Source: Nonomuraea helvata
Lineage (GTDB): Bacteria; Actinomycetota; Actinomycetes; Streptosporangiales; Streptosporangiaceae
Length of the DNA stretch: 64,000 nt
Reading direction: 5' to 3'
Assembly (NCBI RefSeq): GCF_039535785.1
Contig: NZ_BAAAXV010000001.1
Coordinates: 2,356,001-2,420,000, forward strand
Below, one piece after another: positions 36,897-53,356 of the stretch. Each line of letters begins with the position of its first letter. Within the stretch, counting starts at the first letter, position 1. The notes beneath the pieces are model-generated. The model was given only the letters and a program-made list of their open reading frames with translations, searched no databases and was not told where the DNA came from. Position numbers and translations under genes: made by a program.

Positions 36897-38147
36897 ATGC
36901 CCGATATCGCGATGCTCTCGGACGCGCCGGTGGATTGGCGCGGGGACCTTCTCCAGTTCCGGCGGTACGTCGACCCGCTCGTTTCGGTCATTACCAATCC
37001 GCGCACCCAGACGCCGTTCACGATCGGCGTTTTCGGCGCGTGGGGAAGCGGTAAATCGACCCTGCTGCACATGGTCGACCAGCGGCTCCTCGACCGGCAC
37101 GGCGCGGAGTTCGTACGCGTGCATTTCAACCCCTGGGTGCACCGCCGCGAGCCCGAGATGCTCCTCCCCCTCCTGAACGCCCTGCACACGGCGCTGGACC
37201 AGGACCCCGCGCACCGCTTCGCCGACAGCGTCAAGCGGCTCGGCGTCATCATGCTGAACCTCGCCGCCGACGAGCTGCTGAAGCGGATCAACGTGGGCTC
37301 GGCGAGCGTGGAGAAGATCGGCAAGCTCGCGCAGCAGTACGCCGAGATCCGCGGCCAGGTCGACAGCCAGACCGGCCGTCTGCGCGGGCTCCTGCAGGAG
37401 GAGGCCGACCGCCTGGCCGGAAAGGGCAGGAAAATCATCTTCTTCGTTGACGACCTCGACAGGTGCGAGCCCGACCAGATCATCGACGTGCTGGAGTCGA
37501 TCAAGCTCTTCCTCGACCTCAAGAACGTCTTCGTGATGATCGCGCTCTCCAAGGACGTGGTCGACCGCGGGGTGTCGGTGAAGTACAAGCCGTTCGGCTT
37601 CCCCGATCACGCCGTCATCGCCGACGACTACCTCGACAAGATGATCCAGCTCCCGCTGCACCTCTACCCGATCGGCTCCGCGGAGGTGGGCGGCTTCATC
37701 CGCGGCTCGCTCCTGGGCGACCTGGCGGGTAAGCACGTCGCGACGCTGGAGAGGATCGTCGCGCCGAATCCGAGAAAGATCAAACGCGTGCTCAACCTGC
37801 TGCGGGTGACGGAGGCCATCATCGAGGGCACGCCGCGCCTCGCCGGGTTACAGCCCGACCTGGTCGTGCGCCTGGTGGTGCTGCGCGTGCAGAGCCCCGA
37901 GCTGTTCATGGACGTGGTGCGGCAGCCGGCGCTGCTGGTGGCTCTGGAGCTGGTCCACCAGGACAAGCTGGCCACCGACGCGCTCCAGGGCTTCCAGCTG
38001 CGCTTCGGCGCGCGGGCCGAGGAGATCCAGGCCTTGACGAAGGCGTACCACGGCAGGCACGACTTCCTCGCGCCGCTGTTCACCGGCTCGGCGTTCGAGC
38101 CGGCCGCCGCCGAGCTGCCCGACTACCTGACCATGATCGGTGGATGA
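36897..38147 (+). CDS. KAP-family P-loop NTPase
   Basis: This 416-residue ATPase has Walker A GVFGAWGSGKSTLLHMV (Lys53), the KAP hallmark FVRVHFNPWVHRREPEML, and Walker B RKIIFFVDDLDRCEPDQIIDVLESIKLFLDLKNVFVMIALSKDVV. NPRKIKRVLNLLRV is the sensor region. KAP NTPases act as membrane-associated regulatory ATPases and recur in bacterial conflict systems. No transmembrane helix pair interrupts the domain here. AGGGGG lies six bases before ATG 36897. Its end overlaps the next gene by eight bases, starting a coupled three-gene ATPase operon upstream of fxsB. Confidence 0.9.
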   Translation: MPDIAMLSDAPVDWRGDLLQFRRYVDPLVSVITNPRTQTPFTIGVFGAWGSGKSTLLHMVDQRLLDRHGAEFVRVHFNPWVHRREPEMLLPLLNALHTALDQDPAHRFADSVKRLGVIMLNLAADELLKRINVGSASVEKIGKLAQQYAEIRGQVDSQTGRLRGLLQEEADRLAGKGRKIIFFVDDLDRCEPDQIIDVLESIKLFLDLKNVFVMIALSKDVVDRGVSVKYKPFGFPDHAVIADDYLDKMIQLPLHLYPIGSAEVGGFIRGSLLGDLAGKHVATLERIVAPNPRKIKRVLNLLRVTEAIIEGTPRLAGLQPDLVVRLVVLRVQSPELFMDVVRQPALLVALELVHQDKLATDALQGFQLRFGARAEEIQALTKAYHGRHDFLAPLFTGSAFEPAAAELPDYLTMIGG

Positions 38148-39129
38148 GATGCACCCCGCCGACGCCCGCTACGAGCTCTACGGCCTGGAGGAGAACCCCT
38201 ACGCCGTCAGGCCTCTGGACGCCGTCGCCTGCGACTCCGACCGCGAGCTGCTGCTCGAGCTGGCCGGCATCCGCCTGCGGGCGATCGAGGAGGCCGTCCG
38301 GCGGGCGGTCGCCAGGAGGCGGCCCGCTTTCTTCCTGATCACCGGTGTGGGCAAGAGCGGCCGGACCTCGCTGGCCAACCACGTGATGCGCCTCTACAGG
38401 GACGCCTGCGACAGGCCGGACTACACGTTCGTGACCCATGAGGCCGAGCCGGAGGACATGACGCACGACGCGTACGCGCAGATGTGCTCCACGCTGCTCG
38501 ACCTGCGCAACAAGATGAACGAGTGCGCGATCAGGATCCCCGACGAGCTGCGCGCCCGCTTCACCGAGCTGAGCCGCCGCAGCAGCACGGACCCGATGAA
38601 CGAGTACGACCTGCAGGAGATCGCCGGGTTCGCCGGCGCCACCTTCGCCGCCGCGAACGTCGGCTTCGGCATCCGGTACGAGAGCGTGCCGACCAAGAAG
38701 CTGATCTGGCTGGCCACCAAGGTGTTCGAGAGCACGAGCACGGTCGTCGTCTTCATCGTGGACGCCTACGACCACGCCAACACCGCCCAGCTGACCATGG
38801 CCGACCGGGAGCGGTTCGCCACGCGGGGGCAGATCGTGGACCTGGGCACCCTGACGCCGGAGCAGATCGCCGAGCTGGCCCGCCGCCGGTGGAACGGCAG
38901 GCCGCCCCCGCCCTTCCACGACGAGGGGCTCAGGGACGCCCTGAGCGGTCGCACGTACACCGTGGGCCAGGCCATGCGGCGGCTGGAGCTGCTGCTCGAG
39001 TTCCGCCTCAGAGAGTACGAGAAGGACGACCCGTGGCCGACGGCCGACCTGCACATGCCCGAGAACTGGCTGCGGCTGAGGATCTGGCAGGGCGACAGAT
39101 GGAACGGGCTTGGAGGCATCCATGGCTGA
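38140..39129 (+). CDS. AAA-type ATPase-like protein with altered Walker A
   Basis: This 329-residue protein starts at GTG 38140, eight bases inside the preceding gene. It has the N-terminal YELYGLEENPYAVRPL seen in conflict-associated AAA proteins. The P-loop-like FFLITGVGKSGRTSLANHV has Arg where the canonical Lys of GxxxxGK should be. Walker B is STVVVFIVDAYDHAN. LTPEQIAELARRRWNG follows as a C-terminal lid-like region. ATP hydrolysis may be weak or absent, which would suit an adaptor or sensor subunit. It again overlaps the next gene by eight bases. Confidence 0.75.
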   Translation: MDEMHPADARYELYGLEENPYAVRPLDAVACDSDRELLLELAGIRLRAIEEAVRRAVARRRPAFFLITGVGKSGRTSLANHVMRLYRDACDRPDYTFVTHEAEPEDMTHDAYAQMCSTLLDLRNKMNECAIRIPDELRARFTELSRRSSTDPMNEYDLQEIAGFAGATFAAANVGFGIRYESVPTKKLIWLATKVFESTSTVVVFIVDAYDHANTAQLTMADRERFATRGQIVDLGTLTPEQIAELARRRWNGRPPPPFHDEGLRDALSGRTYTVGQAMRRLELLLEFRLREYEKDDPWPTADLHMPENWLRLRIWQGDRWNGLGGIHG

Positions 39130-41791
39130 CTACCCGCGGCGCAACCCCTTCCCGGCCCGGGGCACCTCCAGCGCGGAGGAGACCTCCCTGCCCGGCTTCC
39201 TGAGCGACTGGTCGCGCCAGACCCCCACCGCGATCCTCCCTGGCGTGCGCGGCGCCGTGCGGGTGGCAAGGGCGTACCTCGAGGGCTTCCCTCGCGACGG
39301 CGCGCTCAGCTGCGTGTACGGCGCCCACGGCACCGGCAAGACACACGCCGCCCGCCACATGATGGCGTTCGTCCACAGTGAGAACCCCGAGGCGATCCAG
39401 GTCTACCTGCGCTTCCAGGAGGACGACTTCGTCGCCGCCTACCGCCGCCTGGTCTCCCAGCTGCCGCAGACGCTGCTCGCCGACCTGAGCCTGAGCTACC
39501 TGGGCACGATCGAGGACGACCTGGCCGCCAGAGCGGCTGTCCCCGCCGCGGGCGAGCCGATGGAGCTGCTCGGCGCCGACCAGGTCGAGACCGGGGAGGT
39601 GCTGGAGGAACAGGCCAAGGAGATCGCCGCCGTGGCCGGCGACGCGCCGAGGTTCCAGCGGGCGCTGTCGTACCTGATCAGGCCCGGCTACTCCGAGGCC
39701 GCCTACGACTGGCTGTGCGGCAGGCCGATCAGCGCCGAGGCCGCGGCCGCGATCGGGGTCGGCGGCCGGATCGACGACCCCGTGACCTGCCGCTACGGCC
39801 TGCAGCTGCTGACCACGCTGGTGACCAGGGGCGGGCGGCCGTTCGTGGTGGTGCTCGACCAGTGCGAGAAGTTCCTGCTGGAGGACGGCGAGCCGGTGCC
39901 CGCCAACGCCGGTCTCCTTCAGGGCCTGGTCGAGGTGATCCCGCGGGCCCGCGGGCTGCTGCTGCTCGTGACCAGCGAGAGCGGATGGGACGCCATGCCG
40001 CAGGACCTGCGCCAGCGGCTCGGCGCCGGAGCCTGTCACCTGCTGCCGCTCACGCCGGACGAGGCGCGGCAGGTGCTGGCGGCGTACATCGGCGCCGCTT
40101 CCAAGGGCTCCTCCGACGGCATCCGGCCGTTCACCGAGAAGGGCCTGCTGGAGCTGCTGCGCCACAGCAGCGGCAACATCCGCCTGCTGCTGCAGTTCGC
40201 CTGGTCGAGCTTCGAGGACGCGGCGCCGCGATCGTCGCCGATCGACGCCGGAGTGGTCGCTCGTGCCGCGGCCCGCCACAGCCGCTCCCCCAGCCTCGCC
40301 CGTCTGGCGATGCTCGTCGAGAACGAGCTGCACGCGGGCGGGCTCAGCGCGGAACGGGTCGAGGAGAACGGCCGGATCATGTCGTTCCGGCTGCCCGACC
40401 GGGGCGAGCCACGAGTGGTGATCAAGCTGTCCGAGGCGGTGTTCTTCGACGACGAGGCGCTGAACGCGACCGAGCTCGTCGGCTCCACCGCCCGCTCGAC
40501 CTTCACGGCGCTGCTGGTCACGGGGTACGTCAGCCCGCTGGTGCTGGACGTGCTGCGTGGCGCGCTGCACGCGGTGCTGGTGGCCGACGGCTCCGCCGGC
40601 TTCGCCCGCGAGCTGCACGGGCTCGTCGAGCGGATCGCCTCCATGCCCGCACGGAACGCCCGGTGGGGCGAGTTCGACCTGACCGCGCGAGCACGCCTTG
40701 AGGAGCTGTACGCCGACCGGCTCGGCGAGGCGGCGACGCTGCGCCACGAGCTCGCCAAGCTGGCCGAGCGGCTGGAGGACGACCAGCGCAGACCGCGTCC
40801 CGGCTGGCCCGCCCGGCGCGCGGACCTGGTGGAGCGCGTCTCCCAGGCCAGGGCCGAGCGCGCCGCGGCCGACTGGGAGGAGTTCCGCAGGAGCCGCACC
40901 GACGTCGTCAACCAGCGGGAGACGCTGCTCGGCTGGCTGGCCGTGGCCGTCGGCGCGACGGCGGTGCTGACCGTCATCGCCCTGGCGACCGCCTCGCTCC
41001 ACACGATCCCGTTGAGCGCGGCGCTGGTGGCGGGAGCGCTCGGCGCGGCGGTCGGCGCCGTGCTCGCCCAGAGGAGACTGGCCGCGGTCAGGGTGGGCCA
41101 TCCGAAGGCGGTCCTGCGGTCCGAGCGCGACCTCGACCGGCTCGCCCGCGAGACCGTGCCCGACGCCCGCTCCGTCGATCCGCTCAGGCGCTACGCCTAC
41201 GCGCTCAAGGAGGACCCGGACGAGGCCTATCCCCAGCTGGCGGAGGCCCTGCTGCGGGAGTCGCTGCCCCTCGTCAGGCAGGCCATGGGGCACCGCCTGG
41301 CCGCTTCCACCCGCCTGGCCGCGGACTGCGTGCCCGAGGTGCTGCGCGGGCGGCGCGAGGGCGTGCCCGAGATCCTGCTGCTGCTGACGCGCAGGCAGCG
41401 GCGCGCCGAGTCGGGGCCGCCGCGCGCGCTCCGCGACCTGCCACCCGAGCTGCGCGTGCTCCTCGCGCTCGCCAACCCGGACGCGCTCGAACTGGCCGAC
41501 GGCGCCCTCACGCAGCAACCCGCCGACCTGGCGCTGGAGGCGCTCGGCGTGCGCGGGCCGCAGCACCTGCTCGCGCTGGCCTTCCGCGGCGGCGTGCCTC
41601 AGACCGCGCCGATCGAGATCCCGCCGACCGCGCTCAGAGCCACCGCGCACCTGCTGTCCCCACTGGAACGCGACGGGCTCGGCACATACGACTGGCTCCC
41701 GGTGATCACGAAAATAGATGATCTATACCTATTTTTCGAGGAATTGCTCTATTACCAAGAGGAAATTCGCTCTAGCAGCCATAAATCTTGA
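39122..41791 (+). CDS. Large membrane-anchored P-loop ATPase
   Basis: This 889-residue protein starts at ATG 39122 with GGAGG upstream. The N-terminal ATPase has Walker A CVYGAHGTGKTHAARHM (about residue 65) and Walker B RPFVVVLDQCEKFLLED (about 240), and a winged-helix-like segment follows. Two adjacent hydrophobic segments, LLGWLAVAVGATAVLTVIALATASL and PLSAALVAGALGAAVGAVLA (about 620-665), should anchor it as a hairpin. The C-terminal 220 residues are helical and repeat-like. The last 30 codons and the 96-base gap after them are notably AT-richer than the rest. I do not know a named family; it completes a three-ATPase operon. Confidence 0.75.
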   Translation: MADYPRRNPFPARGTSSAEETSLPGFLSDWSRQTPTAILPGVRGAVRVARAYLEGFPRDGALSCVYGAHGTGKTHAARHMMAFVHSENPEAIQVYLRFQEDDFVAAYRRLVSQLPQTLLADLSLSYLGTIEDDLAARAAVPAAGEPMELLGADQVETGEVLEEQAKEIAAVAGDAPRFQRALSYLIRPGYSEAAYDWLCGRPISAEAAAAIGVGGRIDDPVTCRYGLQLLTTLVTRGGRPFVVVLDQCEKFLLEDGEPVPANAGLLQGLVEVIPRARGLLLLVTSESGWDAMPQDLRQRLGAGACHLLPLTPDEARQVLAAYIGAASKGSSDGIRPFTEKGLLELLRHSSGNIRLLLQFAWSSFEDAAPRSSPIDAGVVARAAARHSRSPSLARLAMLVENELHAGGLSAERVEENGRIMSFRLPDRGEPRVVIKLSEAVFFDDEALNATELVGSTARSTFTALLVTGYVSPLVLDVLRGALHAVLVADGSAGFARELHGLVERIASMPARNARWGEFDLTARARLEELYADRLGEAATLRHELAKLAERLEDDQRRPRPGWPARRADLVERVSQARAERAAADWEEFRRSRTDVVNQRETLLGWLAVAVGATAVLTVIALATASLHTIPLSAALVAGALGAAVGAVLAQRRLAAVRVGHPKAVLRSERDLDRLARETVPDARSVDPLRRYAYALKEDPDEAYPQLAEALLRESLPLVRQAMGHRLAASTRLAADCVPEVLRGRREGVPEILLLLTRRQRRAESGPPRALRDLPPELRVLLALANPDALELADGALTQQPADLALEALGVRGPQHLLALAFRGGVPQTAPIEIPPTALRATAHLLSPLERDGLGTYDWLPVITKIDDLYLFFEELLYYQEEIRSSSHKS

Positions 41792-41887
41792 CTAGCCCTC
41801 GAAGTCGTGAGACATAGGGACCGGGGCCAGCGCCGTTCCCGCTCGATCGAGCCCAGGATGGGGCGCACGACGCATAAGGGGTAGCCG

Positions 41888-43120
41888 TTGTTAGGAAGCC
41901 CTGATTCGCAGCCGCTGCTCACCGGGGGATTCCCCGAATTACTCGACGTCGAGGCGCTGCTGGCGGGCGGCTGGAAACCGCTGGCGTTCCAGCAGTTCAT
42001 TCTGAAGATCCACAGCCGCTGCGATCTCGCCTGCCGCCACTGCTACGTGTACGAGATGGCGGACCAGGGCTGGCGCGACCAGCCCCGCCGAATGTCCGAC
42101 GCCATCGCCGACCGGGCCATCGAGCGGATCGCGGAGCACGCCACCCGGCACGACCTGCCGGAGATCGACGTCGTCCTGCACGGCGGCGAGCCGCTGCTCG
42201 CGGGTCCCGGCCTCATCTCCCGGCTCGTACGCGGCATCCGGGGCGCGGTCAAGACCGGCACCCGGGTCAACGTGAACATCCAGACCAACGCGGTCCGGCT
42301 CGACGAGGAGTACCTGCGGCTGTTCGAGTCGCTGGAGATCCGCGTCGGGGTGAGCATGGACGGCTACGCGGAGGGGCACGACCGGCACCGGCGCTTCGCC
42401 AACGGGCGCGGCAGCCACGCCCTGGTCAGCGAGTCGCTGCGGCGGCTGACCGCGGGGCCGTACCATCACCTGTTCAGCGGGATCCTGTGCACGGTGGACG
42501 TGCGTAACGATCCGCTGCGCACGTACGAGGCGCTGCTGGAGCACGACCCGCCCGCGGTCGATTTCCTGCTCCCGCATGGCAACTGGGCGACGCCCCCGCC
42601 CTTCCGCGTGCCGGGCTCCCCCGAGACGCCGTACGCCGACTGGCTGATCACGGTCTTCGACCGCTGGTACGACAGCCCGGTCCTGCAGACCGAGATCCGG
42701 CTGTTCCGCGAGATCATGCGCCTGCTGATGGGCGGCCACTCCCGGGCGGAGTCCGTCGGGCTGTCGCCGATACGCATGATCGTGATCGAGACCAACGGCA
42801 GCATCGAGCAGTCGGACATCCTGAAGAGCGCCTACCACGGCGCGCCCGAGACCCGGCTGCACATCCTGCGGGACCCGCTGGACGCGGCGCTGCGGCATCC
42901 GTCGATCGTCGCACGGCAGATCGGCGAGCTGGCGCTCTCCCCCGACTGCCGCCGCTGCGAACTCGTGTCCACCTGCGGCGGCGGCCTCTACGCCCACCGC
43001 TACAGCCCGGATGCCGGCTTCTCCGAGCGCTCGGTCTACTGTCCCGACCTGTACCGGCTGATCTCGTACATCGGCGCGCGGTGCGAGCGCGACCTCGCCC
43101 GGCTGCGGGGAGCGGGATGA
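41888..43120 (+). CDS. fxsB: Radical SAM/SPASM peptide maturase FxsB
   Basis: FxsB is the radical SAM enzyme of Fxs RiPP systems, modifying the C-terminal FxSxx motif of a small precursor. The 410-residue protein has the 4Fe-4S motif CDLACRHC (Cys45, Cys49, Cys52), VLHGGEPLL for SAM binding and a C-terminal SPASM-like cluster region CRRCELVSTCGGGLYAHRYS. Start TTG 41888 has AAGGGG upstream. From memory of the family, Fxs maturases form a three-residue cyclophane between Phe and Ser. The cognate substrate is FxsA at 48622-48780. The stop overlaps the HEXXH gene start (ATGA). Confidence 0.92.
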   Translation: MLGSPDSQPLLTGGFPELLDVEALLAGGWKPLAFQQFILKIHSRCDLACRHCYVYEMADQGWRDQPRRMSDAIADRAIERIAEHATRHDLPEIDVVLHGGEPLLAGPGLISRLVRGIRGAVKTGTRVNVNIQTNAVRLDEEYLRLFESLEIRVGVSMDGYAEGHDRHRRFANGRGSHALVSESLRRLTAGPYHHLFSGILCTVDVRNDPLRTYEALLEHDPPAVDFLLPHGNWATPPPFRVPGSPETPYADWLITVFDRWYDSPVLQTEIRLFREIMRLLMGGHSRAESVGLSPIRMIVIETNGSIEQSDILKSAYHGAPETRLHILRDPLDAALRHPSIVARQIGELALSPDCRRCELVSTCGGGLYAHRYSPDAGFSERSVYCPDLYRLISYIGARCERDLARLRGAG

Positions 43121-44388
43121 GCCCGTCTCCGCACCTGATCTCCCGTAGGTCGTTCTCCGGGCTGGCCACCGGCGAGGGCGGCGCGAAGGCGGTGGAGGAG
43201 CTCTGCGCCGCGCAGGAGAGCAAGCACCGGCTGCTGGTGGCGCTGCTCGTGGACGAGGCCGGAGCGCACCGGCACGCAGCCCTCGTGGCCCGCGCCTCCG
43301 AGGCGCTGGATGAGATGGAGGCGGACGCCCCCGAGGAGGTCGGCCGCCTGCTGCGCCACCCCGCGGTGGGCGCGTGGGCGCTGAGCGCGTGCCGGGGCCG
43401 CGCGGACCCCGGGCGGCTGGCGGCGGTCGCCCTGGCCGCGGCCGTGCTCACGCGTACCGCCTGCCGCCTGGACGTGCCGGTCGGTGGCCGCATCATGCTG
43501 CCCTCCGTGGGCCTGCTGAGCCTGCCCGGCGGGCTGCCGGAGGTGGCCGAGGTGTCGGTCGAGCCCGTGGACGGCGGGGCCGAGCTGCGGGTCGGCGGCC
43601 GTACGTACCGGGTGGACGTGGCGGGCGACCGGCCGGGCTGGCAGGTGCTCCATCGGGTCCCCGTCGCGCCCGGCGTGACGATGACCATCGACGACCTCGA
43701 CCCGTACCGCTGGCCTGGGGACGACGCCGACGGCCGCCTGAGCGGCGAACGGCGGCGCACGTGGGTCGCCCGCCTGCGCGAGGCGTGGGAGATCCTGGGC
43801 GCGCGCCACCGGACGGTGGCGAGTGAGGTGGCCGCCGCGGTCTCGGTGCTCACGCCCGTGGTCGCCCGGACGACCGACCAGTACAGCGCCTCGGCGCGGG
43901 TCACGTTCGGCACGATCGCGCTGTCCGACCCGATCGACGGCCTGGGCATGGCGCTGACCCTCGCCCACGAGCTCCAGCACGCCAAGCTGGACGCGCTCAG
44001 CGCGGTGGTGGAGCTGACCCTGCCCGACGACGGGCGCCGCTTCTACGCGCCCTGGCGCCCGGACCCGCGCCCGCTCTTCAGCCTGCTGCACGGCGTGTAC
44101 GCGCACGCGGGCGTGGCCGGGTTCTGGCGGCGGCACACTCAGGACGCCGAGCACGGCACGCGGGCCCAGGTCGAGTTCGCCCACTGGCGCGAGGCGGCGT
44201 ACCAGGCGAGCCGGACGCTCCTCGACAGCGACGGGCTGACCGAGGCCGGCACCCACTTCGTGGCCACGCTCCGCGACACGCTGGGGCGCTGGCGGGCCGA
44301 GCCGGTGACACCTGCCGCCGCCGCCCAGGCCCGCCTGCGGTCCGAGCACCACAGGGAGGCCTGGGTCAGGACGAACACCCAGGTCTAG
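43117..44388 (+). CDS. HEXXH motif-containing peptide-modification protein
   Basis: This 423-residue protein begins MSPSPHLISRRSFSGLATGEGG and carries the metalloprotease-like motif HELQH (His284-His288) in LAHELQHAKLDAL. The domain normally accompanies, or is fused to, FxsB-type maturases, and its catalytic role is not established. The ATG overlaps the fxsB stop, so the two are made together. The stop TAG (44386-44388) lies in the left copy of a 10-bp target duplication of the adjacent IS. Before insertion it shared CTAG with the fxsT stop. Confidence 0.9.
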   Translation: MSPSPHLISRRSFSGLATGEGGAKAVEELCAAQESKHRLLVALLVDEAGAHRHAALVARASEALDEMEADAPEEVGRLLRHPAVGAWALSACRGRADPGRLAAVALAAAVLTRTACRLDVPVGGRIMLPSVGLLSLPGGLPEVAEVSVEPVDGGAELRVGGRTYRVDVAGDRPGWQVLHRVPVAPGVTMTIDDLDPYRWPGDDADGRLSGERRRTWVARLREAWEILGARHRTVASEVAAAVSVLTPVVARTTDQYSASARVTFGTIALSDPIDGLGMALTLAHELQHAKLDALSAVVELTLPDDGRRFYAPWRPDPRPLFSLLHGVYAHAGVAGFWRRHTQDAEHGTRAQVEFAHWREAAYQASRTLLDSDGLTEAGTHFVATLRDTLGRWRAEPVTPAAAAQARLRSEHHREAWVRTNTQV

Positions 44389-44391
44389 ATG

Positions 44392-45898
44392 CAATGCCGC
44401 TTAGTTAAGGGCTTGGGCTGAGAGTCAAGGGTCTGTGATGAGGATGTCGATGCTGATGGTGGCCTTGTAGCTGGTCCGATCGACGGTGCCCTTGGCGTTG
44501 TACTTGGAGATCGCACGTTTGACGACGCGGGGTCGGGTGCGGACCCGCCGGGCGGGCATGAGGTCGGCCAGGATGTGGCTGCCGATGGTGCCGACCAGGT
44601 CGATGACGGTGTCGGCGATGATGCCCGCGGCTTGGATAACCAGGTCGCGGGCGGTGTGCAGGGCGATGGTGAAGCTGGCCCGGTCGGGGTCGATCCCGTG
44701 CTGGGTGCTGGTGGCGTCGGCCATCGCCAGGCGCAGGAGCTGGTAGGTGAGCAGCAGGGCGTACATCTCCTGGTCGAGGCCGTCGGGGGTGCGGGCGCGC
44801 AGCACGCGTCCGCCGAGGATGGTGGATTTCACCTCCAGATAGGCCGTCTCGATCTCCCACCGCTCGTGGTAGAGCGCGATCAGCTCGGCGGCGGGATGGG
44901 TGCGGTGCTCGGTCAGGGTGGTGACCAGCCGGTACAGGCCGGTACAGGCCGGTGCGGCGGCCGGTGGCCGTGGCGATGGCGATCTCGCAGTCGATGACGC
45001 GGACCGCGACCGGGCCGAGCATCGACAGGTAAGAGCCGTCGGCCAGGCGGCGCAGCACCGGCAGCCGGCGGCCGTTCTTGACCCGGACCAGCGTCTGGGC
45101 ACCGGTCGCCGCGATCGCACTCACCAGCGCCTGGGCGGCAAAGTTCCGGTCCAGCAGCACGATCATGCCCGCGTGCAGGCTGCGTACCAGTCGCGGCGCG
45201 TATGTCGTCTCCCCATCGGTGGTCGTGCCGAACACCGCGTCCAGCAGGGTGCGGGTGCCGCAGGAAATCAGCACCAGCAGCCGGATCTGCGGATACCCCG
45301 AGCTGCCGTGGTTGCAGCGCTGCCGGGACAAGACCCTCAGATTCGCCGCGGTGTCGGGCACCGCGATCGTGGTGCCGTCGATCGCGCAGACCCGCCATCC
45401 CCGCCACCACACGCCCGGGGTGGCGATCCCCGCGGCCGGGCCGCGCAGCAGCTCCCACAGCCACCGCACCGGCTCGACCCCCACCCGTCGGCGGGCCTGC
45501 ACCAGCGCACTGGCCGTCGGAACGGCGACCTTCAGCCCGGTCAGCCCGGCCGTCAGTCTCTGCCATACCTGCCGCCAGCCCAGCTCCGGAAACAAGCACC
45601 CGGCCAGCAGTAGGTACACCACCACTCGCGAGGGTAGATCTCGCACGCGCGTCTGCGTCCTGCCCGTCTGCGCCAGCGCCTCATCGACCATCTCGAACGG
45701 GATGAGCCGGGTCAGCTCACCCAGATGACCGGGCGCGAACGCTCCTGCGGCAACCACCACATCACGACGCATGACAGACTGGACATCCAACGGAGCTCCT
45801 GCCGAACAGTGATCTTGGTCGACACCGTTCTAGCAGGCGCTCCGTTGCTGTCTCCGCTGGCTTGACCGACTCGTCACAACGCTAACTAAGCGGCATTG
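44392..45898. mobile_element. IS4-like insertion sequence, 1507 bp, with 16-bp terminal repeats
   Basis: The ends CAATGCCGCTTAGTTA (44392-44407) and its exact reverse complement TAACTAAGCGGCATTG (45883-45898) are terminal inverted repeats. The same 10 bp, GGTCTAGATG, flanks both ends (44382-44391 and 45899-45908), a perfect target duplication of IS4-family size. One transposase gene occupies almost the whole element. A second internal inverted repeat near the transposase start (45788-45802 with 45833-45847, one mismatch) could block read-through transcription. Confidence 0.95.
44425..45790 (-). pseudogene. IS4-family DDE transposase, frameshifted
   Basis: The N-terminal part from TTG 45790 (or ATG 45772) contains the first catalytic Asp in CAIDGTTIAVPDTAAN and the second in IVLLDRNFAAQALV. 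The C-terminal part in another frame holds the IS4 signature YHERWEIETAYLEVK, which fits Y-x2-R-x3-E-x6-K and carries the catalytic Glu, and ends ISIDILITDP. The frames change at 44931-44950, where GGTACAGGCC occurs twice in tandem. Removing one 10-bp copy joins TGRRTGLYR to LVTTLTEHRTHPAAEL in a single frame of normal length. As it stands the product lacks its third catalytic residue. Confidence 0.9.
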
Positions 45899-45901
45899 GG
45901 T

Positions 45902-48421
45902 CTAGATGGGCGGCGGATCGAAGTCGCTGTGGAGCCGCTCGCCGGCGAGCACCGACAGGGTCTCGGGGTGGTCGCGCCCGAGGACCGTGTCCAGCCGCCG
46001 CGTCGTGTCCGCCAGCAACCGCTCGGCCTCCCTCTCGCTGCCCGTGGCCCGCAGGTCGAAGCTCAGGTTGGCGGCGCACACGAGGCTGAGGTAGTGGTCG
46101 GGGCCGAAGGCCGCCTGGATGCGCCGGTGGTTCTCCTCGCCCAGGCTGCGGGCCTCGTCGTGCCGGCCGAGCGCGGCCAGGTCGTTCTGCAGGTTGATGG
46201 CGCAGCTCACGGTGTAGTCGTGGTCGGCGCCGAGCCGCTCGGTGAGGCCGGCCAGGGCCCGTTCGCTGATCTGGCGTGCCTTGACGGGGTCGCCGTTCAG
46301 GCGCGTGAGCAGCGCCAGGTTGATGCTGCACGCGTGGGTGAACGGGTGGTCAGGGCCGAACACGTTGGGATAGTGGTCGAGCCCGCGCTTCGCCAGCTGC
46401 AGCGCCTCCGCGACGTCGCCGTCGGCGCGCAGGGCGTTGGACAGGCCGAGGGCCGCGGCCATCGTGTCGGCGTGCACGTCCCCGTACAGCCGCTCCAGAC
46501 GGGTGTGGGTGTCCCTCAGGAGCTCCAGGGCCTCGGGGAGCCGCCCGCTCCGGCGCAGGGAGATCGCGTAGTCCTTGGCCGCCAGCAGGGCGATGGGGTG
46601 GTCGTCGCCGAGCTGCGCCACGCCGTACTGGTACGCCTCCTCGGCCATGTCGGTGGCGATCTGGACCTGGCCGCCGAGCCGCACGGCTCGGCTCAGGTTG
46701 GTCCAGGTGGAGAGCAGGACGCGGCGCCCGACGCCTTCCGCGCTGCTCCGCTGCAGGTAGACGTCCTGGAGCAGCCTCCCGGCCGCGTCGTAGTCGCTCG
46801 TCAGCGCGTAGTCGATCGCCAGGTTGTTACGGGCTTGCAGGGTTTCGCCGGACTGAGGGCCGGTCACCCGCTCGTACGCCTCGAGCAGCTCCTGGTCGCT
46901 CTGCCGTGCCTGGAAGAACTCACCGCGGCCGCGGAGCGCTCCCGCGTTGCCGTTCTTCGCCCAGAGCGCCTCCAGGCGCTCCGGGCCGATCGTCTCGATC
47001 ATCCCCTTCAAGGACTCCGACATGAGCTCATAGGCCCTGGTGTAGAAGGTCAGGCCCAGGTAGACGATGCCGAGGTGGACGCGGGCGACCAGCACGTCGA
47101 CATGCTGGGCGCCACTGGCCTCGGTCCACTTCGCGATGTACTGGTTCAGCAGCGCCTCCGCCTGCCGGTAGCTGCCTCGCACGTACAGGTAGCGCACCAA
47201 GTCGAGGGCGAACGTGCGCACGGACGGCACCGTGCAGTCGATGACGCCGGAAGGCTCGAGGTGGGCGGCCAGCTCCTCGAACCGGGGCCACCTGGCCGTG
47301 TCGTCGGGGTCGCTCGGCGCGGTGCCCGCCAGCAGCATGTGCACCTCGTGGCGCAGCTCCTCGCGGTCCTCTGGGCTGGTCTCGTCGCGAAGCAGCGCCT
47401 GGTTGAGCCGGTGGACCTGGAGGGTACGGGTGGACGGCTCCACCTTGACCAGGGCGAGGCGCTCGAGATTGCTCAGCGCGTTGGTGAGCATGATCGGGTC
47501 GGACAGGATCTTCCCCAGGCGCGGGCCCACCGCCCGGTTGCCCCGCCGGAACACGTCGCGCGGGATGGGCTCGGGGCCGAAGAACGCGCAGCAGCGCAGC
47601 AGCTCGACCGCCTGCGGCACGCGGTCCTCCAGCTGCGAGACCGACACCTGCCACGCCGCCGTCATGGACTGCGGATAGGTCGGCGACTTCTCCAGGCTGA
47701 GCACGGCGCCCGTCCGCTTCTTCACCAGGCCGACGTACTCGTCGACCGACATCAGCGTGCGCAGCAACAGGGCGGCGGCCTGCTCGAGCGCGAGCGGAAG
47801 GTCGCCGAGCACCTCCGCCACCAGGTTGGCCTCCGACTCGGTCATCGCACTGCCCAGGCGCTTGAGCAGGAACGCCATGCTCTCCTCGCGCTTGAACACG
47901 TCGACCGCGACCGTGTCCTCGTAGTCGCTCCAGCGCGAGTTGCGTGAGGTGATGATGACGTGGCCCGGCCCCCGGGGGATGTAGTCCTTGACCAGGTCGG
48001 GTTCCTCGGCGTTGTCGAAGATCACCAGCCAGCTGCGGTAGGGCACCCCGCTCTGCAACGCGCGCAGCACCGACTGCGCCGCCTGCTCCACTCCGGTGCT
48101 GGTGGCGGGCGGCAGGCCGAGCGCCGTGGCCATCGCGGCCAGCGACGACGGGACGAGCATGGGCTGGTCGGCCGAGACCCACCAGACCAGGTCGTAATGG
48201 GTGCGGTACTGCCAGGCGTACTCGACGGCCAGCTGGGTCTTACCCACGCCGCCGAGGCCCTGCAGCGCCATGGGCTGCGCCACCACGGCGGTCACGGGGC
48301 TGATGCTCTTCCTCAGGGAGAGCAGCAGGTCCGCGCGACCGGTGAAGTTCGGATTGCGCTTCGGGACCCGTTCCCAGACCTGTGGCGCGCGCGCCGCCAT
48401 GGAGTGCGAGTTTTCCGACAC
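45902..48421 (-). CDS. fxsT: FxSxx-COOH system NB-ARC/tetratricopeptide protein FxsT
   Basis: This 839-residue STAND protein is associated with Fxs peptide systems. The P-loop LQGLGGVGKTQLAVEYAW (about residue 55), Walker B SWLVIFDNAEEPDLV, RNBS-like GHVIITSRNSRW and LPLALEQAAALL form an NB-ARC switch ATPase (about 30-330). From about 400 onward there are at least eight tetratricopeptide-like repeats (for example HPIALLAAKDYAISLRRSGRLPEALELL, HPFTHACSINLALLTRLNGD). The start is GTG 48419-48421. It reads toward the IS, and before that insertion ran directly into the convergent HEXXH gene. A sensing role for the modified peptide is inference. Confidence 0.92.
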   Translation of the reverse strand: MSENSHSMAARAPQVWERVPKRNPNFTGRADLLLSLRKSISPVTAVVAQPMALQGLGGVGKTQLAVEYAWQYRTHYDLVWWVSADQPMLVPSSLAAMATALGLPPATSTGVEQAAQSVLRALQSGVPYRSWLVIFDNAEEPDLVKDYIPRGPGHVIITSRNSRWSDYEDTVAVDVFKREESMAFLLKRLGSAMTESEANLVAEVLGDLPLALEQAAALLLRTLMSVDEYVGLVKKRTGAVLSLEKSPTYPQSMTAAWQVSVSQLEDRVPQAVELLRCCAFFGPEPIPRDVFRRGNRAVGPRLGKILSDPIMLTNALSNLERLALVKVEPSTRTLQVHRLNQALLRDETSPEDREELRHEVHMLLAGTAPSDPDDTARWPRFEELAAHLEPSGVIDCTVPSVRTFALDLVRYLYVRGSYRQAEALLNQYIAKWTEASGAQHVDVLVARVHLGIVYLGLTFYTRAYELMSESLKGMIETIGPERLEALWAKNGNAGALRGRGEFFQARQSDQELLEAYERVTGPQSGETLQARNNLAIDYALTSDYDAAGRLLQDVYLQRSSAEGVGRRVLLSTWTNLSRAVRLGGQVQIATDMAEEAYQYGVAQLGDDHPIALLAAKDYAISLRRSGRLPEALELLRDTHTRLERLYGDVHADTMAAALGLSNALRADGDVAEALQLAKRGLDHYPNVFGPDHPFTHACSINLALLTRLNGDPVKARQISERALAGLTERLGADHDYTVSCAINLQNDLAALGRHDEARSLGEENHRRIQAAFGPDHYLSLVCAANLSFDLRATGSEREAERLLADTTRRLDTVLGRDHPETLSVLAGERLHSDFDPPPI

Positions 48422-48521
48422 GTCGATCCTCCGCTCCGCGCCCCGAACAGGTTCTTATATCTCTATGGCCCTATCGTAAAGGTTGATTAGTCGGCCGGTT
48501 TATCACAGAATTAATACACAT

Positions 48522-48553
48522 AAAAAATCTTGCTCGGCCCGGTCGGGCAAGAT
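48522..48553 (-). terminator. Hairpin with T-tract in the fxsT leader (possible attenuator)
   Basis: On the minus strand the arms 48553-48541 and 48539-48527 pair over 13 positions (two G-T wobbles), followed by a run of six T. It points toward fxsT and ends about 100 bases before its GTG. T-tract terminators are uncommon in this GC range. Confidence 0.55.
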
Positions 48554-48621
48554 CTGTGCGCACGCTCATAAGCGCCCACATGTCACCCGATATCCGGGTG
48601 ACCGAAAAGGACGGAGTGCAC

Positions 48622-48780
48622 ATGCGTGACGGGCAGTATGGTTCGGGCAAGCTGATCGACGTGACAGCCGTGTCCCTGCGCAAGCTCCACGAGATGGACA
48701 GCGCCGCGCTCCGGGATGTGCTGACCGCGTGCCTGACCGACGACAAGGAGCAAATGGCGCGTTTCCAGAGCTCCATCTAA
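48622..48780 (+). CDS. fxsA: FxSxx-COOH precursor peptide FxsA
   Basis: This ribosomal peptide precursor is 52 residues from ATG 48622 with GGAG upstream (in-frame GTG 48616 is a near alternative). The leader is polar (MRDGQYGSGKLIDVTAVSLRK...DSAALRDVLTACLTDD). The protein ends KEQMARFQSSI: Phe-Gln-Ser-Ser-Ile at the extreme C-terminus is the F-x-S-x-x-COOH signature processed by FxsB. LIDVTAVSL is the conserved recognition-like segment. It is divergent from fxsT and lies upstream of an nSTAND ATPase gene. No transporter or leader protease is adjacent. Confidence 0.92.
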   Translation: MRDGQYGSGKLIDVTAVSLRKLHEMDSAALRDVLTACLTDDKEQMARFQSSI

Positions 48781-48944
48781 GACATACTCCGCATATCCCA
48801 CCAGCGGACCTGAAACCGGGCGACCGGCGAACAATTCATCTCCGCGGTGGGTGTGCCGGCCGCGCCGGACGTGCAAGGATTATCGATCTCCTTGACCGTC
48901 ACGCAGGAAAAGTGCGATGAAACGCGGCTGCGGAGGGAATCGCC

Positions 48945-51008
48945 ATGACGACTTCCGGCATGGGTACGCAGGCGGCGCCGGGACCGTACCGGGGCTCGCG
49001 CGCATTTCGCGCCGAGGACCGCCACCGATTCTTCGGGCGCGGCGCCGAATCCCACGAAGTACGCAAGCTGTGGCGGGAGCAGCGGCTGACCGTCCTGTAC
49101 GGCGCCTCGGGGATCGGGAAGACCTCGCTCCTCCAGGCGGGTGTCATGCCGCTGTTCAGCCCCGGCGCGTCCGACATCCTTCCGCTCGGCCGGGTGACCT
49201 ACGGGTCGTCTTTCCCGCAGGCCGCGCTGCCTGACCACAATCCGTACGTTCTCGCGCTGCTGATGTCGTGGACTCCGCCGGCGCCGCCCACCGGCCTGGT
49301 GGGCATGACGATTGCGGCGTTCCTCCGCTCCCGGCCGGTCAAGCGTGACGCCTTCGGTGAGCCGACGCCGATCCTGATGGCCATCGACCAGGTCGAGGAG
49401 CTGTTCACCGGCGGGCAGGGGCAGCAGCCGTACCGGCGCTGGTTCTTCGGCCAGCTCGCCGAGGCGCTCCGCGACAACCCCCGCCTCCGCCTGCTGCTGT
49501 CGATCCGCGCGGACCGGCTCCCCGACCTCATGAAGTACGAGCGCGAGCTCGCCAAGATCCTCAAGGACGACCGCGAAGTCGCCGACGCCCCGGAGGACGA
49601 ACGCGAGCCCGGCGACCCGGGTCCGGAGCGCTACGCCCTGGAGGCGCTGGGCTTCGACGGCGCGCTGGAAGCGGTCACCAGGCCGGTGGAGGGCACGGGG
49701 CGCGCGTTCGCCGAGGGCGCGGCCGAGCAGGTGGCGCGGGACCTCATCGCGATCAGGGCGCGAGCGGGTAGCCGGCAGCGGGACCAGGCGGTGGAGCCGG
49801 CCCACCTGCAGGTGGTCTGCGAGTCGCTGTGGCGTTCCCTGCCTCCGGAGACCACCGAGATCAGGCGGAGCGACGTGCTCAGGTACGCCGACCAGGCGCT
49901 GTCCGAGCACTACGCCAGAGAGCTCAGGGAAATCGCCGTCGAACGCTGCAACGGCGACGTCCGCCTGCTCACCACCTGGCTGCGGCTGGCCTTCCCCGGC
50001 CGGGCCGGTGGCGGGCCGCAGGCCGTCCGGCAGAGCGCGATCAGGTCGGCGGGGGTCGGCCAGAGCGTGGTCGCCCTGCTGGTGAAGCGCCGTCTCCTCC
50101 GGGCCGACGAGCAGCTGGGCGAGAGCTCGTACGAGCTGGCGTACGACCGGCTGCTCCAGCCGGTCGAACAGGACGAGCAGAGTGTGGAGGCCATCCCCGT
50201 CGAGCTGCGCTCCGAGGACTGCCTCCGCGAGGCGGAAGGCGCGCTGCGCGAAGGCGATCTCTTCCTGGCCGCCCGGCTCGGCGAGGAGGCGCTGGCCCGG
50301 GCGCAGGAGCACGACCTCACACTGCGCGCGCAGATCGAGTCGCTGCTCGGCAACGTCGCCCATCAGCGCAAAGAACTGGACACGGCCATCGCCCACTACG
50401 CCACGGCCGCCAGGAGCTTCGAGACCGCCGGCGCGGCGGCCGCCGTCGGCCCGCTGCTCACGGCCATCGGAAGGCTGCGGCTGGCACAGGGCTCACCCGC
50501 GGCGGCCGTACGCGAGCTGCACGCCGCGATGATCCGTGTGCCGGCGGACCTGACGATCCAGACGGAGCTGGCCTGGGCGCTGTGGCAAGGCGGGCATCCT
50601 GACGCGGCCGTGGACGTGCTCAACGGCGTGCTCGACAGGCAGGGCAACAACATCGACGCCCTGCTCGGCCGCGGCCAGATCCTGGCCGGTATGGGTCGGC
50701 CGCAGGCCGCGCTCCGCGATCTCGAGCGGGTGGGGCCGCTGCGCCGGCCGTTCGCCAAGGTCGCGCACGCGCTCGCGCTCGCGCTCGCGCAGAGCGAGCG
50801 TGTGCAGGAGGCCCAGCAGGAGATGGTGGAGGCGCTGGCCGAAGCCGTGGATCACGGGCCGGTGCTGCTGTACGCGGCGCGCGTGGAGGAGCTGGCGGGC
50901 AAGACCTCCTCGGCCGCGGTGCTGGCCCAGCAGGCCATCGCGGCCTCGGCCCCCGCGATACCCGAGCACATGACCAGGGACGCCCGGCGGCTGGCCGGCG
51001 TCGGGTGA
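48945..51008 (+). CDS. nSTAND1 ATPase with tetratricopeptide repeats
   Basis: This 687-residue protein begins PYRGSRAFRAEDRHRFFGRGAESHEVRKLW, the typical entry of nSTAND1 NTPases. Walker A is LYGASGIGKTSLLQAGV (about residue 55), Walker B PILMAIDQVEELFTG, and the sensor region LRLLLSIRADRLPDL. Residues about 425-680 are helical tetratricopeptide repeats (for example LGNVAHQRKELDTAIAHYATAARSFE). STAND proteins are switch ATPases that oligomerise on ligand sensing. Start ATG 48945 is 164 bases after fxsA on the same strand. Whether it serves the Fxs system is inferred from position. Confidence 0.88.
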   Translation: MTTSGMGTQAAPGPYRGSRAFRAEDRHRFFGRGAESHEVRKLWREQRLTVLYGASGIGKTSLLQAGVMPLFSPGASDILPLGRVTYGSSFPQAALPDHNPYVLALLMSWTPPAPPTGLVGMTIAAFLRSRPVKRDAFGEPTPILMAIDQVEELFTGGQGQQPYRRWFFGQLAEALRDNPRLRLLLSIRADRLPDLMKYERELAKILKDDREVADAPEDEREPGDPGPERYALEALGFDGALEAVTRPVEGTGRAFAEGAAEQVARDLIAIRARAGSRQRDQAVEPAHLQVVCESLWRSLPPETTEIRRSDVLRYADQALSEHYARELREIAVERCNGDVRLLTTWLRLAFPGRAGGGPQAVRQSAIRSAGVGQSVVALLVKRRLLRADEQLGESSYELAYDRLLQPVEQDEQSVEAIPVELRSEDCLREAEGALREGDLFLAARLGEEALARAQEHDLTLRAQIESLLGNVAHQRKELDTAIAHYATAARSFETAGAAAAVGPLLTAIGRLRLAQGSPAAAVRELHAAMIRVPADLTIQTELAWALWQGGHPDAAVDVLNGVLDRQGNNIDALLGRGQILAGMGRPQAALRDLERVGPLRRPFAKVAHALALALAQSERVQEAQQEMVEALAEAVDHGPVLLYAARVEELAGKTSSAAVLAQQAIAASAPAIPEHMTRDARRLAGVG

Positions 51009-51047
51009 GGGCCGCGCGGCTTCGGATGAAGGCACGGCCGTCGGACG

Positions 51048-52325
51048 TCAGGCGGCGCTTCCGGGAGAGGCCGGCACCAGGTACGCGCGCAGCACCCGCA
51101 TGCGGGTGGCCGGCACCGCCACGCCGAGCATCGCGAGGAGCAGCACGAAGGAGCCGCCCGCCACCCCGAACCAGGTCACCAGGAAGCCGCCCAGAGGCGC
51201 CGCGAGACAGATCGCGCCGTGGGACGTCAGCCGGGAGACGCCGACCACGCGGGCCAGCGTCTTCGGCGGGATGCACTCCACCTCGATGGCCCTGATGCAC
51301 ACGTTGCTCACCGCCCCGCCGAAGCCCGTGATGAACAGCGCCATGGCGAAGAAGACCGCCCGGATCTCCAGCATCGCGCCGAGGGCCGCGGTGGACAGCG
51401 CCGCGACCCAGATCCACATGTGAACGAACAGGATCGAACGCATCGGCCGCCTGAGATAAGGCGTCAGTGCCGCTCCGACGGCTCCCCCGACGCCGGCGGA
51501 GGCCAGCACGAGCCCCACCGTCAACGACGTGAGGCCGCTGGAACCGGCCACGAAAATCATGATCATCGCATTCACCATCAAATTGGTGATGGCGATGAGC
51601 GCGACCGAAGCACGGAGAAACGGCTGGTGCTTGAGCGCCCGGAATCCGGCCAGCAGGTCGCGCTGCCACGGCGGACGTGCCGGCAATCGGCTGGGACCCG
51701 TGCGCATCCCCAGGAACAGCAGGAACGACATGCCGAAGAGCACCGCGTTGACCGCGAAAGGCATCAGGTATCCCAGCCCGAACAGGTAGCCGCCGAGCGG
51801 CTTGCCCGCGAGCGAGGCCAGATGGCTGGCGCTCTCCGTCCTCGCCAGCGCGTACCGCAGCCCGGTCCGCTCCACCAGGGACGGCAGCAAAGACATCTCC
51901 GCCAGCATGTAGAGCACCCACATGGCACCCTCCACGAACGCGGCCAGGATCACGTGCGGCAGCCACACGTGATGGAAGAACACCAGCGCCACGCACACAC
52001 TCGCCACGGTCAGCCCGCGCACCGATTCGGCGAAGAGCACAATCGAACGGGGCGGTATCCGGTCGACCAGAATCCCACCGGGAACATAGAGGATCAGAAT
52101 TGGGAGCGTCAGGGCAAATCCGGTCCAACCCGCCGCAGCGGGTGACCCCGTTACCGCAAGCGCCAGAAGGGGATAAACCACACCGAGAGTGCGGGTGCCG
52201 ATCGTGGAGATGGCCGAGCCGGCCCAGACTCGGACGAAGTCCGGCGTCCAAGGAGGCGGCGAGCCGCGCCGTGCCGCGTAAGTTCCTTCCACGCCCCCGC
52301 CCCAGCCGCTTCCCTCGGGCCGCAT
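51048..52325 (-). CDS. MFS transporter
   Basis: This 425-residue secondary transporter has about twelve membrane segments, beginning DFVRVWAGSAISTIGTRTLGVVYPLLALAVTGSPAAAGWTGFAL. The first is typical of the MFS_3 exporter branch (enterobactin- or drug-exporter-like). LPSLVERTGLRYALARTESASHLASLAGKPLGGYL is the conserved cytoplasmic loop. The ATG at 52323-52325 is chosen because the longer open frame upstream is unlike the family. It diverges from an AAC(3)-type acetyltransferase gene, so both may serve antibiotic self-protection. Substrate unknown. Confidence 0.9.
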   Translation of the reverse strand: MRPEGSGWGGGVEGTYAARRGSPPPWTPDFVRVWAGSAISTIGTRTLGVVYPLLALAVTGSPAAAGWTGFALTLPILILYVPGGILVDRIPPRSIVLFAESVRGLTVASVCVALVFFHHVWLPHVILAAFVEGAMWVLYMLAEMSLLPSLVERTGLRYALARTESASHLASLAGKPLGGYLFGLGYLMPFAVNAVLFGMSFLLFLGMRTGPSRLPARPPWQRDLLAGFRALKHQPFLRASVALIAITNLMVNAMIMIFVAGSSGLTSLTVGLVLASAGVGGAVGAALTPYLRRPMRSILFVHMWIWVAALSTAALGAMLEIRAVFFAMALFITGFGGAVSNVCIRAIEVECIPPKTLARVVGVSRLTSHGAICLAAPLGGFLVTWFGVAGGSFVLLLAMLGVAVPATRMRVLRAYLVPASPGSAA

Positions 52326-52540
52326 GACCTCTGCGGCATCAATACGCGTGGGAACAGCGACATAGTGCTTGCAACGGGATGCACGGGAAAACGTCGACCC
52401 ACATATTGGCACTGCAACCCGTTGAAGTATAGCCAGGTAACGTGCAGGTAGGAGGCATTCTGGCTCTCCCAATTCCGTACGTTTACTGACCAAATCGCAC
52501 TGTTTACGGTAACTATCGCATAATAAGGCGATCAGGAGTA

Positions 52541-53356
52541 ATGACCGCTCGGATGGTGACCTCACACCTTATGATCAACAATGCCCGGTTATCACGCGAC
52601 CTCGCCGCCTTGGGGATCGGACCCGGGCAGGTCGTGCTCATGCATTCCTCGCTCAGCCGCCTGGGCCACGTCGAGAGCGGCGCCGGCACAGTGGTCGCCG
52701 TGCTGCGCGAACTGCTCGGCGGCGACGGCACTCTCACCGTCCCGACCGGCACCTCGGCCAACTCCGACACCTCACCGCACTACCGCGGCGCCACCGCTGG
52801 GATGAGCCCGGACGAGATCGCCCGCTACCGCTCCGCGATGCCGGCCTACGATCCCCGTACCACTCCGTCCACGTCGATGGGCGTGATCGCCGAGTGCGTA
52901 CGCACCTTGCCCGGCGCCCTCCGCAGCGCCCACCCGCAGACGTCCTTCGCCGCCATCGGACCACGGGCTGCGGCGATCACCGGCGGGCACGCCCGCGACT
53001 GCCTCCTCGGCGAGCGCTCGCCGCTCGCCCGGCTCTACGACGCCGGAGCTCTGATCCTGCTGCTCGGCGTCGGCTACGACAAGTGCACCGCGTTCCACCT
53101 GGCCGAATACCGCTACACCAGCGACCCGCCGCGGCGCGGCTACCGCGCCGTGGTCGACGACGGGCAGGGGCCCCGGTGGTGCGAGTTCGTGGACGTGGAC
53201 GTGGACGTGAGCGACTTCGAGGCTCTGGGCGCGGACTTCGACGGGACCGGCGCGGTGCGGCGCGGACGGGTCGGCGCGGCCGAGGCCCGTCTGTTCCCGC
53301 TGATCGCCGCCGTGGACTACGCCGTCGACTGGTTCGCCACCCACCGCAGGCGCTAG
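52541..53356 (+). CDS. Aminoglycoside 3-N-acetyltransferase family (AAC(3)-type) protein
   Basis: This 271-residue member of the antibiotic N-acetyltransferase family transfers acetyl from acetyl-CoA to an amino group, classically N3 of aminoglycosides. Motifs are VLMHSSLSRLGHVESGA, DGTLTVPTGTSANSD, PSTSMGVIAECVRTLPGALRSAHPQTSFAAIGPRA with the catalytic-region His, LLLGVGYDKCTAFHLAEYR, and the C-terminal FPLIAAVDYAVDWFATHR. AGGAG sits only two bases before ATG 52541, so GTG/ATG codons at 52553-52571 could be the actual start. It overlaps the convergent GNAT gene by four bases at CTAG. Confidence 0.9.
   Translation: MTARMVTSHLMINNARLSRDLAALGIGPGQVVLMHSSLSRLGHVESGAGTVVAVLRELLGGDGTLTVPTGTSANSDTSPHYRGATAGMSPDEIARYRSAMPAYDPRTTPSTSMGVIAECVRTLPGALRSAHPQTSFAAIGPRAAAITGGHARDCLLGERSPLARLYDAGALILLLGVGYDKCTAFHLAEYRYTSDPPRRGYRAVVDDGQGPRWCEFVDVDVDVSDFEALGADFDGTGAVRRGRVGAAEARLFPLIAAVDYAVDWFATHRRR

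What the first reader, a model, noticed from the sequence alone, without database searches (positions are those of the whole stretch)
36897..51008. Fxs RiPP system embedded among five P-loop switch ATPases
A KAP NTPase, an AAA-like protein and a large two-helix membrane ATPase, coupled by eight-base overlaps, precede fxsB and its HEXXH partner. fxsT (NB-ARC/TPR), fxsA and an nSTAND-TPR ATPase follow. Fxs components with FxsT are a known association. The upstream ATPase trio and downstream nSTAND look like an added sensing or effector layer, resembling conflict or immunity loci more than a secreted-peptide cluster, since no exporter or leader protease is present. The modified FxSxx tail may be an intracellular signal recognised by the STAND proteins.
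Basis: partly seen in the sequence, partly recalled or inferred. Interest (0 to 1): 0.75.

Follow-up and report, generated by a model that had tools for sequence, protein, structure and literature searches.

The report
Peptide-making locus joined by ATPase trio
A soil bacterium carries a conserved gene locus predicted to make a cross-linked small peptide, packed with immune-switch-like proteins; three of them form a module that its lineage appears to have added, which hints that the peptide may work with a membrane-bound switch.

Summary
The locus is real and conserved. Nonomuraea window 36897-53356 holds KAP, an ORC/Cdc6-fold AAA+ protein (P2), a two-TM ORC/Cdc6-fold ATPase (P3), fxsB, HExxH gene, fxsT, fxsA (48622-48780, tail FQSSI), nSTAND1-TPR, an MFS permease and an AAC(3)-family gene. 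In the 54 Nonomuraea genomes held, 17 carry this fxsB clade; 13 of 17 have P3 52-117 bp upstream, and 13 of 14 close P3 genes lie there. Planotetraspora has the whole locus. Trees suggest one gain and one or two losses of the trio. A related AAA+ protein (P3d) lies 5-8 kb from fxsB in 15 of 24 other genomes.

A linked MFS permease exists (21 of 40). An IS4 element splits the locus without breaking a gene. fxsB has its own conserved promoter-like motif, older than the trio. P2 has Arg for the Walker A Lys.

FxSxx peptide systems coupled to AP-ATPase-TPR proteins are already proposed as conflict systems (PMC7159879). This is a new variant; a working link between trio and peptide is inferred.

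The parts
36897..38147 (+). KAP NTPase, first gene of the trio
   Evidence: PF07693 E 1.3e-36; conserved start MPDIAMLSDAP in relatives
38140..39129 (+). P2, ORC/Cdc6-fold AAA+ protein with Arg for the Walker A Lys
   Evidence: alignment; model and fold search
39110..41791 (+). P3, ORC/Cdc6-fold ATPase with two-helix membrane hairpin (start may be ATG 39122)
41787..41816 (+). conserved promoter-like motif of fxsB, CTTGACT-N17-GAGACATA, overlapping the P3 stop
   Evidence: 0 of 1440 control windows
41888..43120 (+). fxsB radical SAM/SPASM maturase
   Evidence: TIGR04269 456 bits, cut-off 370
43081..44388 (+). HExxH (aKG-HExxH beta-hydroxylase type)
   Evidence: TIGR04267 153 bits, cut-off 40
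44392..45898 (-). IS4-family insertion element, not part of the system
45902..48421 (-). fxsT, NB-ARC-TPR protein
   Evidence: NF040586 963 bits, cut-off 300
48622..48780 (+). fxsA precursor, 52 aa, tail FQSSI
   Evidence: TIGR04268 19.8 bits, below the 28-bit cut-off
48945..51008 (+). nSTAND1-TPR protein
   Evidence: PF20703 E 2.1e-32 and TPR families; 28 of 40 standalone fxsB loci
51048..52565 (-). MFS permease, candidate exporter
   Evidence: PF07690 E 6.3e-20
52541..53356 (+). AAC(3)-family (Antibiotic_NAT) enzyme, candidate peptide acyltransferase
   Evidence: PF02522 E 1.9e-77, 173 of 270 bits for AAC_3

Best explanation
One conserved Fxs (FxSxx-COOH) RiPP locus, about 36897-53356, with three layers. 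(a) Core: FxsA precursor; FxsB, which by family should make a Phe-to-Ser (or Phe-to-Asn) three-residue cyclophane in the last five residues; an optional HExxH hydroxylase; FxsT (NB-ARC-TPR); an MFS permease; an AAC(3)-fold acyltransferase. (b) A widespread switch, nSTAND1-TPR. (c) A lineage-specific trio: KAP NTPase, P2 (ORC/Cdc6-fold AAA+ with a disabled-looking Walker A) and P3 (ORC/Cdc6-fold ATPase with a membrane hairpin). Shown: anatomy, recurrence, one gain and one or two losses of the trio on these trees, and a promoter-like motif of fxsB found also in trio-less systems. Inferred: the mature peptide is a regulated signal or toxin; FxsT and nSTAND read it or its consequence through their TPRs; KAP, P2 and P3 assemble at the membrane as a nucleotide-gated complex in which P2 does not hydrolyse ATP and the P3 hairpin with its C-terminal domain is the output. 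The trio is a conflict-type module recruited to the peptide system rather than a part of peptide synthesis.
Against: No functional data. fxsB-HExxH has its own promoter-like motif, so the trio need not be co-expressed. The trio was lost once or twice while the Fxs core stayed, and occurs without fxsB in the fetched 20-23 kb in G227, G172, G219, G212, N. typhae (L117/L150) and, as P2-P3, Catellatospora. KAP is a 44-residue remnant in N. cypriaca, HExxH is missing in 4 of 18 clade loci. P3 and fxsB+fxsT trees share only 2 of 10 splits (both 100%; label shuffles gave mean 0.17, at most 3 in 2000), and one grouping supported at 100 in each tree conflicts, so partner swapping is possible. In L146 and L147 (no trio, no nSTAND) the FxsA tail runs on past the motif, perhaps decay. 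In the fxsB-ascertained sample only 1 of 40 standalone and 0 of 20 fused loci had P3d.
Confidence: 0.45

Rival explanations
1. Ordinary secreted-peptide cluster: FxsA is matured, perhaps acylated by the AAC(3)-fold enzyme, and exported by the MFS permease as an antibiotic or signal; the STAND-type proteins are regulators of the AfsR kind or self-protection, and the trio is accessory.
For: MFS in 21 of 40 standalone fxsB loci and 17 of 18 clade loci; AAC(3)-family gene in 15 of 18 clade loci and beside fused fxsBH in 7 of 20 loci, 0 of 20 controls, though 0 of 40 in the standalone sample. A core without nSTAND and trio persists in L145-L147. FxsT matches AfsR weakly (62 bits, cut-off 1430).
Against: No protease family among the ten proteins scanned. 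MFS is lost in N. antri (L114) while fxsA, fxsB, fxsT and AAC(3) stay. Five switch-type proteins are more than a usual RiPP cluster holds (general knowledge).
Confidence: 0.3
2. The trio is an unrelated defence or stress module that lies upstream of fxsB and is inherited with the chromosomal site.
For: Promoter-like motif of fxsB that is older than the trio; trio without Fxs in several genomes; loss or losses that leave Fxs intact; a stable site UbiA ... DapB in the genus.
Against: Of 14 Nonomuraea genomes with a close P3, 13 have it directly before a clade fxsB and none before any of the 49 other listed fxsB copies. A homologous ATPase is near fxsB in a second architecture in 15 of 24 genomes. 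P3 has the two-TM C-terminus in the Fxs context and not in G227.
Confidence: 0.25

Closest known systems
FxSxx peptide-processing systems coupled to AP-ATPase-TPR proteins (Kaur et al. 2020, PMC7159879)
   Same: FxSxx precursor, radical SAM/SPASM enzyme, zincin-like HExxH gene and an AP-ATPase protein with TPRs; the authors propose a peptide toxin or signal in conflict (section 24 read).
   Different: The main text holds no 'KAP' as a word, no 'Cdc6' and no 'MFS'. The standalone systems there have an AP-ATPase with an added MinD/ParA-like domain; window FxsT showed no such domain at E<=0.01. Here nSTAND1, MFS, an AAC(3)-family gene and the trio are present. The paper calls the HExxH protein a peptidase; NCBIfam names the family a peptide beta-hydroxylase.
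Triceptides and 3-CyFE radical SAM enzymes (XncB, OscB, MscB, YhhB)
   Same: FxsB is in the cyclophane-forming SPASM group; F-x-S (MscB) and F-x-N (XncB, OscB) are known cross-link sites (PMC11002830, passages).
   Different: The motif sits at the extreme C-terminus of FxsA and the locus carries ATPase switches.
Qat anti-phage system (QatA, a KAP-type ATPase)
   Same: KAP protein matches the QatA profile (112.7 bits).
   Different: Far below the 600-bit cut-off; the nine other proteins scanned match no Qat model.
BREX BrxC/BrxD ATPases
   Different: 30.7 of a 350-bit cut-off; no other BREX model among the ten proteins scanned.

Membership tests
Fxs (FxSxx-COOH) RiPP system | FxsB radical SAM/SPASM maturase | tested here: met
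   TIGR04269 456 bits, cut-off 370
Fxs (FxSxx-COOH) RiPP system | Short precursor ending FxSxx | tested here: met
   52-aa ORF 48622-48780 ends FQSSI; but TIGR04268 gives 19.8 bits, under its 28-bit cut-off; N. ceibae orthologue 28.7
Fxs (FxSxx-COOH) RiPP system | FxsT TPR protein | tested here: met
   NF040586 963 bits, cut-off 300
Fxs (FxSxx-COOH) RiPP system | aKG-HExxH partner | tested here: met
   TIGR04267 153 bits, cut-off 40; not detected in 4 of 18 clade loci
Fxs (FxSxx-COOH) RiPP system | Cyclophane actually formed on FxsA | not testable with these tools
   needs mass spectrometry and NMR
VMAP ternary conflict system (Kaur 2020) | MoxR AAA+ and vWA pair | tested here: not met
   No MoxR or vWA model among the ten locus proteins scanned with Pfam at E<=0.01
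Qat anti-phage system | QatA at family cut-off plus Qat partners | tested here: not met
   112.7 of 600 bits; no other Qat model in the ten proteins scanned
BREX | BrxC/BrxD at cut-off with BREX partners | tested here: not met
   30.7 of 350 bits for BrxD; no partner model in the ten proteins scanned
ORC/Cdc6-type AAA+ fold (P2 and P3) | Fold match over the AAA+ module | tested here: met
Regular Walker A NTPase (P2) | Walker A lysine | tested here: not met
   Arg in 13 of 13 aligned P2 proteins

The most novel reading that the evidence does not exclude
A cyclophane peptide acts inside the cell as a ligand that licenses assembly of a membrane-anchored heteromeric ring of ORC/Cdc6-type AAA+ proteins (P3 with an ATP-locked pseudo-ATPase P2, and KAP), beside two STAND-TPR switches. 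Fxs peptides would then be a peptide counterpart of nucleotide second messengers, and the pairing of a P2/P3-type ATPase pair with Fxs would have arisen in two architectures (KAP-P2-P3 and X-Y-P3d).
Probability: 0.17. Interest if true: 0.85.

Novelty: new variant of a known kind. Interest (0 to 1): 0.52.

Why it matters
FxSxx systems are common in this family (TIGR04269 in 122 of 200 genomes), and no paper found in my searches tells what the peptide does. The natural presence or absence of trio, nSTAND, HExxH, MFS and AAC(3) at one chromosomal site in Nonomuraea gives a ready set of variants to separate synthesis, export and switching. If the peptide gates the ATPases, modified peptides become a class of intracellular immune signal; if not, the trio is a portable ORC-like module worth study by itself.

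Tried and rejected

Papers: searches (listings). Read: section 24 and passages of PMC7159879, passages of PMC8195603 and PMC11002830. Published work on fused FxsB/HExxH enzymes is recalled, not seen here. That the trio-Fxs link is unpublished rests only on these searches of open-licence papers; supplementary files could not be opened.

Controls were 20 loci at round coordinates in sampled genomes. Gene calls are homology- or GC3-based. The P3d profile A6 came from 7 Fxs-linked and 3 unlinked loci. Contigs of L106 and L108 end inside the locus.
Full report
WHAT IS THERE. The window lies in an 11.26-Mb, 12-contig genome. Left to right: adenosine deaminase, KAP NTPase (36897-38147), P2 (38140-39129), P3 (39110-41791), fxsB (41888-43120), HExxH gene (43081-44388), an IS4-family element (44392-45898), fxsT on the minus strand (45902-48421), fxsA (48622-48780), nSTAND1-TPR (48945-51008), MFS permease on the minus strand (51048-52565) and an AAC(3)-family gene (52541-53356; PF02522 E 1.9e-77, but 173 of 270 bits for the AAC_3 equivalog, so drug resistance is not implied). 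Sources. FxsB carries a CxxxCxxC motif (CDLACRHC).

CONSERVATION. The same order and orientation, without the IS element, occurs in N. ceibae (L027/L107), G100 (L028) and Planotetraspora thailandica (L029/L115), at 72-79% identity for KAP, 51-68% for P2 and 49-60% for P3. A pattern scan of genome contigs (84,980 species) with a P3 alignment confirmed 13 loci: ten Nonomuraea and Planotetraspora with trio plus Fxs, and Nonomuraea typhae and Catellatospora with trio parts but no fxsB in the fetched 21-23 kb. Exceptions among the ten: L108 starts inside P2, L111 keeps a KAP remnant, L109 and L110 lack HExxH, L114 lacks nSTAND and MFS.

TWO-WAY TEST IN THE GENUS. The 54 Nonomuraea genomes held were searched with window FxsB and P3. 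FxsB at 76% identity or more: 17 genomes, then a gap to 61% (49 further listed copies at E<=1e-120). P3 at 53% or more: 14 genomes; three more have a divergent P3 (39-43%). Thirteen close P3 genes lie 52-117 bp upstream of a clade fxsB on the same strand. Four clade fxsB genomes lack the trio (G232, G218, G241, G141), and one close-P3 genome (G227) has KAP-P2-P3 with a 524-residue P3 and no Fxs gene in 20 kb. The trio-less loci sit at the same site, between UbiA and GNAT/DapB. On the FxsB+FxsT tree they nest within trio loci: 3 changes, 2 forced by supported branches; a 100/100 branch unites L144-L147 with four trio loci. With L068, L073, L074 and L083 as outgroup, one gain and one or two losses is the simplest reading (the printed root is a midpoint). 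P2 was found in no other genome of 394 drawn from the class.

WHICH PARTS ARE STANDARD. Sixty fxsB loci of the family were fetched. Standalone (40): fxsT 37, HExxH 35, nSTAND 28, MFS 21, KAP 3, P3d 1, P2 0, P3 0, AAC(3) 0. Fused (20): fxsT 19, AAC(3) 7, MFS 1, nSTAND 0. Random controls (20): 0 for every gene. So nSTAND and MFS belong to the standalone Fxs type, and an AAC(3)-family gene recurs beside fused fxsBH. The three KAP cases are larger proteins beside MFS and nSTAND; the one scanned (L138) is a KAP-NACHT fusion. In 18 clade loci, chosen by fxsB or P3: fxsB 18, fxsT 18, MFS 17, AAC(3) 15 (one contig ends early), HExxH 14, nSTAND 14, P3 14, P2 14, KAP 12.

PROMOTER. Alignment of ten P3-fxsB gaps shows CTTGACT and GA-ATA blocks kept while the rest varies. 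The pattern [CA]TTGAC-N17-22-ANATA lies upstream of fxsB in 11 of 13 trio loci (L113 shows it; L114 lacks it), in 4 of 43 fxsB of the standalone sample, these four lying next to the trio clade on the tree, in 0 of 20 fused and 0 of 8 P3d-type fxsB, and in 0 of 1440 control windows. L144 has it and L145-L147 show variants. In the window it spans 41787-41816 and overlaps the P3 stop codon. The trio thus seems to have come in upstream of an existing fxsB promoter.

PEPTIDE. FxsA tails in the clade: FQSSI (window, Planotetraspora), FSSSI, FQSAI, FSNSI, FQNSI, FNNSI, FANSI, FSNTI, FDNFI in L144 and, in L146/L147, a run-on after FGNSL/FDNSL. Asn stands at the motif Ser in most of them; both F-x-S and F-x-N are cross-linked by known 3-CyFEs.

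STRUCTURE. P2: AAA+ of ORC/Cdc6 type. P3: ORC/Cdc6-type AAA+ (1-400), a small alpha/beta part, long helices with the TM hairpin, helical C-terminus; beyond residue 400 barely tested. STAND NTPases are placed in the CDC6/Orc clade, and KAP can take their place in conflict systems (PMC8195603, passages).

VERDICT. Real, conserved and partly new: a known predicted conflict-type RiPP system with an added ORC/KAP ATPase trio. The mechanism remains inferred.

Noticed in passing
44392-45898: IS4-family element with 16-bp terminal inverted repeats and a 10-bp target duplication GGTCTAGATG, inserted at the overlapping CTAG stop codons of convergent HExxH and fxsT; a second, 100% identical copy (1441 bases compared) is at G000:C9:2201231-2202671. 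The transposase reading is split between two frames.
   Followed up: partly
35824-36846: Adenosine deaminase homologue is interrupted by an in-frame TAG at 36298-36300; the relative in L105 (5874-6872) is one open frame.
   Followed up: partly
L105:6906-7688 and L144:9300-10013: A GAF-ANTAR protein gene lies left of KAP (L105) or of fxsB (L144; similar frames in L145-L147); in the window KAP follows adenosine deaminase directly.
   Followed up: partly
L073 and L083: Two Fxs systems stand head to head with divergent fxsB genes in two genera.
   Followed up: no
L086, L093, L096, L097, L099, L103, L104: AAC(3)-family gene match beside fused fxsBH: a candidate RiPP acyltransferase rather than a resistance gene.
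   Followed up: partly
L030:9497-13603: P3 N-terminal ATPase fused to a NACHT domain in a KAP-P2-P3 operon without fxsB in the fetched 20 kb (G172); 1653-1726-residue open frames with a P3 N-terminus in G219, G240, G212, whose C-termini were not scanned.
   Followed up: partly
L148:4378-7343: Two genes with no Pfam hit at E<=0.01 precede the Fxs-free trio of G227.
   Followed up: partly
L109, L110, L144, L155: HExxH gene not detected although fxsB and fxsT are kept.
   Followed up: no
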